From Alicyclobacillus sp. (GTDB lineage: Bacteria > Bacillota > Bacilli > Alicyclobacillales > Alicyclobacillaceae), in NCBI RefSeq assembly GCF_023511815.1, contig NZ_JAIMAV010000009.1, positions 1 to 57,808 on the forward strand: DNA of 57,808 bases, read 5' to 3'. A model generated the notes under the pieces. The model made no database searches and was not told the origin of the DNA. It saw only the letters and a program-made list of their open reading frames with translations. Positions 50,994 to 54,183 of this stretch are shown here, one piece after another (position 1 is the first letter of the stretch; the number at the start of each line of letters is the position of its first letter). The translations under genes and the position numbers were made by a program.

Positions 50994-51018
50994 CCCCGGG
51001 GAAACCCGGGGTTCTTCG
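50994..51018 (+). terminator. Terminator after ndh
   Basis: CCCCGGG (50994-51000), GAAA tetraloop, CCCGGGG (51005-51011), then TTCTTCG. Confidence 0.6.
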
Positions 51019-51041
51019 TGTCGGGCGGGGAGGCGGGCGCG

Positions 51042-52076
51042 GTGTTGGATTGGATGCGCGCGATGGAGGCGTTGGAGCAGGCGGAACCGGGCGGGGTGTA
51101 CACCCTCGTCGGAGAGGAGCACGCCTTGGTGGAGGCATTCCTCGAACGGCTGCGGGCCCGTGTGGGGGATGCGGAGGGGCCGGCGGAGCTGCTTCGGTTG
51201 GACTTCGAAGAAGAGGGATGCGAGGGCGCGGTGTTCGCCCTCGAGAGCCTGAGCCTGTTCCAGGTGCAGCCGGTGGTGGTTCTCCAACGGTGCACCGCCA
51301 TGACGTCCGGTTCGCGGGTCCGGCACACGACGGATGCGCTCGAGGCGTATCTGGAGCGGCCCGCGCCGGGGCGGGCGCTGGTCATCACGGTTGAGGCGGA
51401 CAAGCTGGATGAGCGCAGACGGCTGGTCAAACTGGCCAAGAAGCACACCATGGTGGACTGCCGGATTCCGAAGGAAGCGCAGGGCCTTCAGATCCTCCGG
51501 CGCCTCGCCGCGGCGGAGGGACTCCAGGTGGAAGGGACGGCCCTGCGGGAGCTTTGGCGGCGGTCCGGGTCGGTCTCCGTGGGGTTGCAGGAGCTGCGCA
51601 AACTGTGGATGTTCACAGACGGGCGGTCCATCACACCGGCGGATGTGGAGGCGGCCGTCGCGCCACCCCTGGAGGACGATGTGTTCGCCTGGATTGACGG
51701 TGTGGTGCAGGGACGGGCGGAGCGGGCGATGCGCGCCCTGGCGGACGTGGAGCGCGCCGGGGAGGATCCGCTCAAGCTGTTCGCACTGATTGCGCGGCAG
51801 GTGCGGCTGATGTGGTACGCCCGGGTCATGGAGGCGCGGGGCATGACGCAACAGCAGATCGCCGCCGAGGCGGGCGCGCACCCGTACGCGGTGCGGGTCG
51901 CGTCCAACCAGGCGAAGCGAGTCCGCCCCGAACATCTGGAGCGGCTGCTGGTGGTCCTGGCCGATCTCGAGTACGAGGTGAAATCCGGCCGTCGCGAGGC
52001 ACGTCACGCGCTGGAACTGGCGGTGCTCTCCTGTTGCGGACCCGCTGTTGAACCGGGCGCCCGCGGCGCATGCTAA
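51042..52076 (+). CDS. holA: DNA polymerase III subunit delta
   Basis: About 344 residues. HolA clamp-loader subunit: GGVYTLVGEEHALVEAFLERLRA near the N terminus, LDFEEE..., FALESLSLFQVQPVVVLQR, RALVITVEADKLDERRRLVKLAKKH, and the C-terminal helical domain (DDVFAWIDGVVQGRAERAMRALADVERAGEDPLKLFALIARQVRLMWYAR). GTG 51042 with GGGGAGG 7 bases upstream is preferred; GTG 51018 lacks a site. It loads the beta clamp with DnaX and HolB. Confidence 0.92.
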   Translation: MLDWMRAMEALEQAEPGGVYTLVGEEHALVEAFLERLRARVGDAEGPAELLRLDFEEEGCEGAVFALESLSLFQVQPVVVLQRCTAMTSGSRVRHTTDALEAYLERPAPGRALVITVEADKLDERRRLVKLAKKHTMVDCRIPKEAQGLQILRRLAAAEGLQVEGTALRELWRRSGSVSVGLQELRKLWMFTDGRSITPADVEAAVAPPLEDDVFAWIDGVVQGRAERAMRALADVERAGEDPLKLFALIARQVRLMWYARVMEARGMTQQQIAAEAGAHPYAVRVASNQAKRVRPEHLERLLVVLADLEYEVKSGRREARHALELAVLSCCGPAVEPGARGAC

Positions 52077-52094: not shown

Positions 52095-52625
52095 ATGGCG
52101 AGAAGACGGTTGTTGGTGCCGGAGGCGCGGCGGGCGCTGGACGCGCTGAAGGAACAGGTGATGGAGGAGAAGGCGCCGGACACATCGGACATGAGGGACG
52201 CGACCACGCCTCGTCCGGTTGCCACGGCCACGGCGGGCGGTGGTCCGGCGGCTACGCCGGGTCGGGTTTCGACCGCGGTGCGGGGTGGGGCCCAGGCGGC
52301 CCCCGCGCGATCGGCCGCGGTGCCACTGCCGCAACACCCGGGGATGGCCGGGCCTCCCCGCGGGGCGGCCGGGGGGAACGACAAGGACGCGGCCAAAGCG
52401 CGTGTGGCGGCCCGGGTGGGGGTGCCCTACGCCGCCGGACGGACGGATCACGGAGAGATGACGGCCCGGCAGGCGGGGAAGCTCGGTGGCGAGATCGGCG
52501 GAGCGATGGTGCAGCGTCTGGTGGAAATCGCCAGGCAGGAGCTGTCCAAACAGCCGCCGCTGGTGTCACCGCTGCAGGTCCGGCAATTGCTCGGCCGCGG
52601 GGGCAGGTCCGCTCCGCGGCCCTGA
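52095..52625 (+). CDS. Alpha/beta-type small acid-soluble spore protein-like, with a central insertion
   Basis: A 176-residue protein in which the two halves of an alpha/beta SASP are separated. Residues 1-25 (RRLLVPEARRALDALKEQVMEE) match the N-terminal half and residues 101-155 (RVGVPY...EMTARQAGKLGGEIGGAMVQRLVEIARQEL) the C-terminal half; normal SASPs are 60-90 residues. Residues 26-100 are a Pro/Ala/Gly/Thr-rich low-complexity insertion. The Glu before the Phe-Gly-Val-like GPR cut site is not present in its usual form. SASPs coat spore DNA. ATG 52095 has GGAGGTG 8 bases upstream. The GPR protease is encoded about 520 bases away. Confidence 0.75.
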   Translation: MARRRLLVPEARRALDALKEQVMEEKAPDTSDMRDATTPRPVATATAGGGPAATPGRVSTAVRGGAQAAPARSAAVPLPQHPGMAGPPRGAAGGNDKDAAKARVAARVGVPYAAGRTDHGEMTARQAGKLGGEIGGAMVQRLVEIARQELSKQPPLVSPLQVRQLLGRGGRSAPRP

Positions 52626-52676: not shown

Positions 52677-52707
52677 AAAAAACGACCCGTCACGGGTCGT
52701 TTTTTTC
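52677..52707. terminator. Bidirectional terminator between the SASP-like gene and rpsT
   Basis: A perfect 13-bp stem (52677-52689 with 52693-52705), loop TCA, six A residues on the left and seven T residues on the right. It serves both converging genes. Confidence 0.92.
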
Positions 52708-52724: not shown

Positions 52725-53000
52725 TCAGGCCTGGGCCTGATTCGCTGCGTTGAAGCGCCGGGTAAGCCGGGATTTCTTGCGGTTGGCCGCGTTGCGGTGG
52801 ATGATGCCCTTCGTCGCGGCTTTATCCAACGCGCGCGTGGCGATGCGCAGGGTCACCTGCGCCTGGCTCAGGTCGCCTTGCGCGAGGGCGCGCTCAAACT
52901 TCTTGATGGTCGTGCGCAGCGCGGACTTGAGCGAGGCGTTGCGCAGCGTGCGCCGTGCGGATGTGCGGACGCGTTTCTCTGCGGACTTGATGTTCGGCAC
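52725..53000 (-). CDS. rpsT: 30S ribosomal protein S20
   Basis: A 91-residue basic S20 of usual length: PNIKSAEKRVRTSARRTLRNASLKSALRTTIKKFERAL, then ALDKAATKGIIHRNAANRKKSRLTRRFNAA. It binds 16S rRNA early in assembly. It starts with GTG at 53000 with AAGGAGGTGG upstream. The gene is opposite in direction to holA and gpr, as in Bacillus. Confidence 0.97.
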   Translation of the reverse strand: MPNIKSAEKRVRTSARRTLRNASLKSALRTTIKKFERALAQGDLSQAQVTLRIATRALDKAATKGIIHRNAANRKKSRLTRRFNAANQAQA

Positions 53001-53142: not shown

Positions 53143-54183
53143 ATGACAACACCAAAGGCCTGGCCGGTGCGGGGACAAAGGTCCATGGAGGATGACGGCT
53201 GGGGCGCAATGGACAGTTACAGTCCGCGCACGGATCTCGCCATCGAGGCGCACGAGATGGCGCGCCGCAAGGTCCAGACGGTGCCAGGCGTCGTGGAGGA
53301 GACCGAGGAGTTTGACGGGATCCGCGTCTCCCGCGTGCATGTGCAGAACCGGCAGGGAGAACAGGCTTTGGGCAAGCGCGTCGGCCATTATGTGACCATC
53401 GAGGTGCCTGGCTTGCGGCGGCGGGACCCGGATCTGCAGCAGCGGGTCGCGGAGCAGTTCGCGAAGGAGTTCGAGCGCCTGTTGCGCGTTCCGGAGAATG
53501 CCACGGTCCTGGTGGTGGGGTTGGGCAACCAGCAGGTCACGCCCGATGCCCTGGGCCCAAAGGTCGCGCAGCGACTGTTCGTCACAAGGCATCTGTTTCA
53601 GTACTTCCCCGAACTGCTGGGTGAGGGATACCGGACGGTGGCGGCCGTATCTCCCGGCGTGCTGGGCGTCACCGGGGTCGAGACGAGCGAGGTGGTCAAG
53701 GGCATCGTGGAGCACGTCAAGCCGGATCTGGTCGTCGCGATTGACGCGTTGGCGTCCCGTTCCCTCAACCGCGTCAACGCGACCATTCAGATCTCGGACA
53801 GCGGCATCCAGCCGGGCGCCGGGGTCGGCAACAAGCGCAGGGCGCTGGACGAGGAGACGCTCGGCTGCAAGGTGCTCGCGGTGGGCGTGCCGACGGTGGT
53901 GGATGCCGCGACCATCGCCAACGACGCGATGGAGCTGATTCTGGAGAAGTTGCGGGTCAGCGTGCCCAACAACGGGGCGAGCCAGATCTTTGACCACTTC
54001 ACACCGCAGGAGAAGTGGCAGCTGATCAAGGAGGTGCTGGAGCCGCTCGGCAACAACCTGATGGTGACGCCGAAGGAGATTGACGAGTTCATCGACGACG
54101 TGGCGGAGGTCGTCGCGCAGGGGTTGAACCTGGCCCTCCATCCGTCGATGACGATGGAGGAGGCGAGCCAGCTCACCCATTGA
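53143..54183 (+). CDS. gpr: GPR endopeptidase (spore germination protease)
   Basis: A 346-residue aspartic-type protease that degrades SASPs at germination. The propeptide is followed by RTDLAIEAHEMA; the zymogen is cut just before such a segment in Bacillus. Seen are VVGLGNQQVTPDALGPKVAQRLFVTRHLF near residue 124 with active Asp candidates, VVAIDALASRSLNRVNATIQISDSGIQPGAGVGNKR near residue 194 and GVPTVVDAATIA. ATG 53143 follows GGGAGGCGG. The N-terminal extension is about 20 residues longer than in Bacillus. Confidence 0.95.
   Translation: MTTPKAWPVRGQRSMEDDGWGAMDSYSPRTDLAIEAHEMARRKVQTVPGVVEETEEFDGIRVSRVHVQNRQGEQALGKRVGHYVTIEVPGLRRRDPDLQQRVAEQFAKEFERLLRVPENATVLVVGLGNQQVTPDALGPKVAQRLFVTRHLFQYFPELLGEGYRTVAAVSPGVLGVTGVETSEVVKGIVEHVKPDLVVAIDALASRSLNRVNATIQISDSGIQPGAGVGNKRRALDEETLGCKVLAVGVPTVVDAATIANDAMELILEKLRVSVPNNGASQIFDHFTPQEKWQLIKEVLEPLGNNLMVTPKEIDEFIDDVAEVVAQGLNLALHPSMTMEEASQLTH

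What the first reader, a model, noticed from the sequence alone, without database searches (positions are those of the whole stretch)
52095..52625. Alpha/beta SASP split by a 75-residue low-complexity insertion, next to gpr
Residues 1-25 and 101-155 match the two conserved halves of alpha/beta-type small acid-soluble spore proteins, but about 75 Pro/Ala/Gly/Thr-rich residues lie between them, near the position where GPR normally cuts. The acidic residue that marks the usual cut site is not seen. The gene is in the holA-rpsT-gpr interval. A SASP that binds DNA with two separated helices, or one resistant to GPR, would be a new variant of the spore DNA-protection system.
Basis: partly seen in the sequence, partly recalled or inferred. 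Interest (0 to 1): 0.62.

Follow-up and report, generated by a model that had tools for sequence, protein, structure and literature searches.

The report
Spore DNA-protein lacking its cut site
A spore-former related to Alicyclobacillus has an unusual relative of the small proteins that coat spore DNA: its two conserved parts are joined by a long floppy tether and it lacks the site at which such proteins are normally cut when the spore wakes up, so it may stay on the DNA longer.

Summary
ORF 52095-52625 (176 aa) matches PF00269 (46.4 bits, cut-off 22) in two stretches, residues 4-25 and 101-150. Residues 26-100 match nothing and are predicted mostly disordered. At the GPR cut position stand Gln21 and Arg103, not Glu. 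The gene lies between holA and rpsT-gpr.

It is not a one-off split SASP. It belongs to a distinct, mostly single-copy SASP lineage found in 160 of 398 sampled genomes of its class. Two traits mark it: a doubled Gly-Gly motif (GGxxGG, 77 of 77 members read, 0 of 81 paralogues) and, usually, a 12-24-residue spacer after helix 1. Relatives from other classes often show two helix-1 copies, so the 'insertion' is probably an expanded linker between duplicated helix-1 segments.

The cut-site Glu is kept in 81 of 81 paralogues and 29 of 30 lineage members away from this locus, but in 2 of 30 holA-rpsT copies of the window's family. There the spacer ranges from 0 to 82 residues; the window's is the longest measured.

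Best reading: a DNA-binding SASP relative that GPR cannot cut at the usual place. DNA binding, GPR resistance and forespore expression are inferred, untested. New variant of a known kind.

The parts
52095..52625 (+). SASP-lineage gene, 176 aa (P0001)
   Evidence: PF00269 46.4 bits
52081..52087 (+). Shine-Dalgarno-like GGAGGTG, 7 bases before the ATG
   Evidence: read by eye
52046..52075 (+). weak sigma-G-like pair TGTTGA-17-CATGCTA overlapping the holA stop; inconclusive
   Evidence: 1 of 100 mononucleotide shuffles scores as well; only 5 of 27 orthologues at <=5/100 against 12 of 21 paralogues; consensus recalled
52119..52193 (+). helix 1 (residues 9-33 in the model), with the LVPEAR..AL motif's end and the first helix-1b segment LKEQVMEEKAP (residues 18-28), Gln21 at the cut position
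   Evidence: p=0.020 against shuffles
52194..52376 (+). Pro/Ala/Gly/Thr-rich linker (residues 34-94), predicted disordered
   Evidence: linkers of congeners no more alike than shuffles allow
52377..52424 (+). second helix-1b segment (residues 95-110; KARVAARVGV is 101-110), Arg103 where GPR substrates have Glu
52485..52502 (+). doubled Gly-Gly motif GGEIGG (residues 131-136)
   Evidence: 77 of 77 lineage members read, 0 of 81 paralogues
52494..52550 (+). helix 2 (residues 134-152 in the model)
   Evidence: orthologue profile aligned to SspC 33-56 in 2Z3X
52677..52705 (.). 13-pair hairpin ending in A and T runs between the convergent SASP gene and rpsT: probable bidirectional terminator
   Evidence: folded as DNA; z -6.02, 0 of 200 shuffles; not reported by the consensus scan
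51018..52076 (+). holA, immediately upstream
52725..53000 (-). rpsT, convergent
53143..54183 (+). gpr, germination protease

Best explanation
The gene encodes a SASP-lineage protein of a separate branch of PF00269 (GGxxGG plus spacer; probably a duplicated helix-1 segment). Shown by sequence: homology of both helical parts to SASPs, doubled GG motif, no Glu at the GPR position in either helix-1 segment, a long linker predicted disordered, dN below dS in both conserved parts. Inferred: it is made in the forespore, binds DNA through the same helices as SspC with helix 1 tethered by a flexible linker, and is not cut by GPR at the usual bond at germination. It would then stay longer on DNA than the four classic SASPs of this genome (C113, C32, two on C121), or be removed by another route, for instance general proteolysis of the exposed linker.
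For: PF00269 46.4 bits and 49.3 bits when the halves are joined. GGxxGG in 77 of 77 lineage members read and 0 of 81 distinct paralogue ORFs from 15 genomes (members were found with a profile whose sequences have the motif). Cut-site Glu: 81 of 81 paralogues, 29 of 30 lineage members elsewhere, 6 of 11 at this locus in other families, 2 of 30 in the window's family (24 have another residue, 4 lack the segment), 0 of 6 in the next family of the order (5 lack the segment). PMC8452069 (passages): the conserved EIA is cleaved by GPR. Tree: lineage on one side of a branch, 96/89; the main paralogue group 100/96 (only 59 columns). dN/dS of G000 against G001: N-terminal 27 codons 0.204/1.288, C-terminal 45 codons 0.218/1.112. 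Model: helices 9-33, 95-108, 124-130, 134-152 with disorder between. Relatives from other classes of the phylum: 12 of 18 fetched rows have two helix-1b copies by pattern, 16 of 18 have three GG units.
Against: No experiment shows DNA binding, expression or GPR resistance, and GPR of this family was not examined for its specificity. Sigma-G-like promoter evidence is weak. The AF2 model is poor (mean pLDDT 63.7, pTM 0.26). The gene is missing from the interval in 8 of 37 family genomes and a remnant in one, so it is dispensable there. In one genus (14 of the 30 family members read) the LVPEA N-terminus is replaced, and in three other members the spacer is 0. Between G001 and G002 the N-terminal part gives dN 0.050 and dS 0.112, little constraint in few changes. 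The duplication test is significant in only part of the rows (13 of 29 elsewhere, 8 of 21 at the locus), with a PWM of classic SASPs in only 6 of 29 and 6 of 36, and the L-K-x-x-V part of the first segment is expected from an ordinary helix 1.
Confidence: 0.55

Rival explanations
1. A decaying paralogue: after a relaxed requirement for GPR cleavage, the copy in the window's family drifts, gaining low-complexity linker in a GC-rich genome, and is being lost.
For: Missing from the interval in 8 of 37 family genomes, remnant in G013 (L079); spacer 0-82 residues in the 12 members measured; linkers of congeners no more alike than shuffles allow (27, 35 and 34 of 300 shuffles score as high); N-terminus replaced in 14 of 30.
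Against: Present with an open frame in 27 of 37 family genomes; GGxxGG in all 30 family members read; dN well below dS in both conserved parts between G000 and G001 or G002.
Confidence: 0.2
2. An ordinary minor SASP: binds DNA like the others and is removed at germination by another protease or by GPR at another bond.
For: A disordered linker is an easy target for general proteases (inference). YyaC is reported to cleave SASPs (title of Wetzel and Fischer 2015 seen in reference lists; paper not read).
Against: In the 15 genomes surveyed every paralogue keeps the Glu (81 of 81) and only this gene lacks it, which suggests that loss of GPR cleavage is tolerated or selected here.
Confidence: 0.18
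3. A pseudosubstrate or regulator of GPR: SASP-like, uncleavable, encoded beside gpr.
For: Location next to gpr and no Glu at the scissile site.
Against: No gpr hit in the 30 lineage loci read elsewhere (flanks of +/-1.5 kb for 11, about +/-2.5 kb for 19). At the same locus other families keep the Glu in 6 of 11. The gene is in line with holA, not in an operon with gpr (rpsT lies between, on the other strand).
Confidence: 0.05

Closest known systems
Classic alpha/beta-type SASPs (PF00269; SspA-SspD, SspC structure 2Z3X)
   Same: Two helical parts in the same order; helix-2 Gly-Gly motif; the profile of the orthologues finds SspC at E 6.2e-06 with both halves aligned.
   Different: 176 aa instead of 60-75; 82-residue spacer; probable extra helix-1 segment; GGxxGG instead of GG; no Glu at the GPR site.
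GGxxGG SASP lineage of the window's class (unnamed; no NCBIfam match at E<=1 for the four members tried)
   Same: The window gene lies inside it.
   Different: The 30 members read away from this locus keep the Glu in 29 cases and have a spacer of 13-20 residues in the 29 measured.
Clostridium perfringens Ssp4 (PMC2323104, passages and one section read)
   Same: A long (90 aa) alpha/beta-type SASP, about 20% identical to the 59-60-aa SASPs, with variant residue 36 in the GPR-cleavage region: size and site position would fit an N-terminal helix-1 copy. Membership in the same lineage is inference; its sequence was not compared.
   Different: Reported to bind DNA and to raise spore resistance; the paper places residue 36 in the region cut by GPR.
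SspF-type SASP (C84 of the same genome, L007)
   Same: A minor PF00269 paralogue.
   Different: Keeps Glu at the cut site, single helix 1, no GGxxGG; separate branch in the tree. Named by recalled resemblance to B. subtilis SspF.

Membership tests
PF00269 (SASP homology) | Score above the curated cut-off | tested here: met
   46.4 bits against 22; 49.3 joined
Classic alpha/beta-type SASP | GPR cut site (E-I/V-A) | tested here: not met
   Gln21 and Arg103; Glu in 81 of 81 paralogues. So it is filed as a SASP homologue, not as a classic GPR-degradable SASP
Classic alpha/beta-type SASP | Small size (60-75 aa according to PMC8999374) | tested here: not met
   176 aa
Classic alpha/beta-type SASP | Helix-2 Gly-Gly motif | tested here: met
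   GGEIGG, residues 131-136; doubled
Classic alpha/beta-type SASP | Sigma-G-dependent forespore expression | tested here: inconclusive
Classic alpha/beta-type SASP | Binds and protects DNA | not testable with these tools
   needs EMSA or footprinting
GGxxGG SASP lineage | GGxxGG, groups apart from the other PF00269 genes | tested here: met
GGxxGG SASP lineage | Spacer with a second helix-1 segment | tested here: inconclusive
   spacer present (82 residues); duplication probable (p=0.020 for this protein; p=0.651 with the classic PWM)
Ssp4 | Sequence relation to Ssp4 | not tested
   Ssp4 sequence not compared; only text read

The most novel reading that the evidence does not exclude
The window's family has evolved a GPR-proof SASP from a duplicated-helix SASP lineage. 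Its conserved parts, joined by a disordered tether, hold separate sites or two duplexes together in the spore nucleoid, and it persists on DNA after the classic SASPs are destroyed, marking or condensing chosen regions during outgrowth.
Probability: 0.13. Interest if true: 0.75.

Novelty: new variant of a known kind. Interest (0 to 1): 0.48.

Why it matters
Cleavage by GPR is treated as the general fate of alpha/beta SASPs at germination. A conserved gene that keeps the SASP core but lacks the cut-site Glu, in genomes where all other SASP genes surveyed keep it (81 of 81 in 15 genomes), gives a direct test of whether some SASPs are meant to outlast germination. The wider lineage (GGxxGG, probable tandem helix 1; matches in 160 of 398 sampled genomes of the class at E<=1e-6) matched no NCBIfam model here and was not met in the papers searched, yet a long SASP of similar build (Ssp4) is reported to raise spore resistance.

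Tried and rejected
The sigma-70/terminator scan and Rfam gave nothing useful for the gene. Sigma-G-like sites: only weakly better than shuffles, so left inconclusive. A helix-1 duplication test with a PWM from classic SASPs was weak, also for the window protein itself (p=0.651); with copy 1 of relatives from other classes it improved. The idea that the linker is a known domain was rejected: no Pfam match, low pLDDT. The AF2 model was judged too weak for a fold search, which was not run. An attempt to find a C. perfringens genome by a published primer sequence searched only one genome and found nothing. phmmer of P0001 against the PDB gave SspC only at E 0.5, below an unrelated chain.

Paper searches: (listings with the starts of abstracts). 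Passages read in PMC3533761, PMC7985256, PMC8452069, PMC8999374, PMC8745062 and PMC2323104, and one section of PMC2323104. None that I saw describes this gene or lineage; most subscription journals are not in the library.

Full report
OBSERVATION. The ORF at 52095-52625 (+) is real, 176 aa, its ATG 18 bases after the holA stop (TAA at 52074-52076), with GGAGGTG ahead of it. Pfam finds only PF00269, 46.4 bits against a cut-off of 22. Neighbours are holA, rpsT (opposite strand) and gpr. A strong hairpin with A/T ends lies between the gene and rpsT (52677-52705, z -6.02). The genome has seven PF00269 genes, this one included.

NAMES. Genomes in the genome search are unnamed. 'Family' is the tool's f1; L039 (A. 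macrosporangiidus DSM 17980) has the contig length of G002, a genome of the window's genus. NCBI places Tumebacillus in Alicyclobacillaceae too (shown), but the tool puts such genomes in other families; I count them there. That the class is Bacilli, and that relatives from other classes are clostridial, is my inference.

ORTHOLOGUES. Searching 61 genomes with the protein gave matches in 42. Of the 30 loci returned, 29 have holA beside the gene, 28 rpsT and 27 gpr (two contigs end early); one (L031) has none. Among the 37 family genomes in that search, 27 have the gene there. Of the other 10, 8 lack it in the interval (whether it lies elsewhere was not settled for all), G013 has a remnant, and in G018 rpsT was not found. 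Three more family genomes have it between holA and rpsT, giving the 30 family members used below. Three Tumebacillus species have the gene in the same interval.

A SEPARATE SASP LINEAGE. A profile of 17 orthologues (A1) found matches at E<=1e-6 in 160 of 398 genomes of the class, one match in 144 of the 160 by my count of the table; at most 10 candidates per genome were scored. I read 30 members away from holA-rpsT: 11 from the best loci and 19 fetched, picked to span families. All 77 members read carry GGxxGG; none of 81 distinct paralogue ORFs of PF00269 from 15 family genomes does. The A1 sequences all have the motif, so the search favours it. In a tree of 141 rows (65 lineage members; 12 without a recognised second segment left out) the lineage is one side of a branch with support 96/89 and the main paralogue group 100/96, but only 59 columns were used and many forks are unresolved; the holA-rpsT members as a group have no support (42/0).

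THE 'INSERTION'. Counted from the Val of the first segment to the Val of the second, the spacer is 13-20 residues in the 29 members elsewhere that could be measured, 12-24 in 11 members at this locus in other families, 7 in the one measurable member of the next family of the order, and 0, 0, 0, 15, 19, 23, 30, 39, 40, 44, 77, 82 in the 12 measurable family members; the window has 82. The extension is thus about 60 residues on a spacer that looks ancestral. A phylum-wide search gave 26 of 299 genomes at E<=1e-10, 23 of them outside the class; 18 of these 23 were fetched. Of the 18, 12 have two helix-1b copies by pattern (10 of the 12 with Glu in both copies) and 16 have three GG units. A PWM of their first copy finds its best window in the expected register in 28 of 29 members elsewhere (13 with p<=0.05) and 18 of 21 at the locus (8 with p<=0.05; the window protein p=0.020). 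The L-K-x-x-V part of that window is expected from an ordinary helix 1, so register alone does not prove a duplication. With classic SASPs as PWM the signal was weak (6 of 29, 6 of 36; window p=0.651). I take a duplicated helix-1 segment as probable, not proven.

THE CUT SITE. PMC8452069 (passages) says that the conserved EIA of SASPs is cleaved by GPR. The Glu is present in 81 of 81 paralogues, 29 of 30 lineage members elsewhere (the exception has Lys), 6 of 11 at this locus in other families, 0 of 6 in the next family of the order (5 lack the segment, 1 has Gln) and 2 of 30 in the window's family; there 24 have Leu, Arg, Met, Gln, Gly, Asp, Pro or Ile and 4 lack the segment (three rows that the pattern missed were set by eye, checked). 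That the Glu is essential for GPR is recalled, not tested here.

LINKER AND SELECTION. The window linker is 65% Pro/Ala/Gly/Ser/Thr. Linkers of the three congeners are no more alike than composition allows (27, 35, 34 of 300 shuffles reach the observed score), while the N-terminal 27 and C-terminal 45 codons have dN 0.20-0.28 and dS 1.1-1.6 between G000 and the other two; between G001 and G002 dN/dS is 0.050/0.112 and 0.096/0.458. The AF2 model has helices 9-33, 95-108, 124-130, 134-152, 159-167 and disorder between, with low overall confidence (mean pLDDT 63.7, pTM 0.26). The profile A1 finds SspC of 2Z3X at E 6.2e-06 with both halves aligned; that 2Z3X is a DNA complex is recalled.

EXPRESSION. 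A sigma-G-like pair (TGTTGA-17-CATGCTA, 52046-52075; consensus recalled) overlaps the holA stop; 1 of 100 shuffles does as well, but only 5 of 27 orthologues reach <=5/100 against 12 of 21 paralogues. The gene may also be read with holA. Inconclusive.

MECHANISM. Shown: homology, architecture, no Glu at the cut position, dN below dS. Inferred: DNA binding as in SspC, flexible tether, no GPR cut at the usual bond, longer stay on DNA or removal by another route. Rivals are a decaying paralogue, an ordinary minor SASP cleared by other proteases, and a GPR pseudosubstrate.

KNOWN OR NEW. The protein is a SASP homologue but fails the GPR-site and size features of classic alpha/beta SASPs. C. perfringens Ssp4 (90 aa, variant residue in the GPR region) may be a clostridial relative of the lineage; not compared. 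No NCBIfam model matched the four lineage proteins tried, the window's among them (one of the four typed with altered first residues). No paper seen describes the lineage, within an open-licence library.

Noticed in passing
L213, L214, L218, L221, L222, L224, L225: A third PF00269-like group in 7 of 15 family genomes: a short SASP-like core (M-R-x-E-V/I-A-x-E-L/V-G, then mostly a C-G-x-F/Y/L-G motif), most with long charged or Ser/Arg-rich tails, no GGxxGG, cut-site Glu kept; own branch in the tree.
   Followed up: partly
L232-L242, L244-L246, L248, L249: SASPs from other classes of the phylum with three GG units (GGxxGGxxGG, 16 of 18 loci fetched); 12 show two helix-1 copies by pattern, 10 of them with Glu in both.
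   Followed up: partly
L019, L022, L023, L025, L026, L029, L030, L032-L035, L227-L229: In one genus (g5) the LVPEA N-terminus is replaced by a stretch around 'I-G-x-D/N-G-x-L/I'; function unknown.
   Followed up: no
L079 1828-2109: Remnant in G013: N-terminal MARRRRKLLVPGAREGLERW kept, GGxxGG core lost.
   Followed up: no
window 52677-52705: Strong A/T-ended hairpin between the convergent SASP gene and rpsT, not reported by the consensus scan.
   Followed up: yes
L031 1365-1650: G060: lineage member split over two frames in the assembly (frameshift or assembly error), with no holA, rpsT or gpr hit in its flanks.
   Followed up: no
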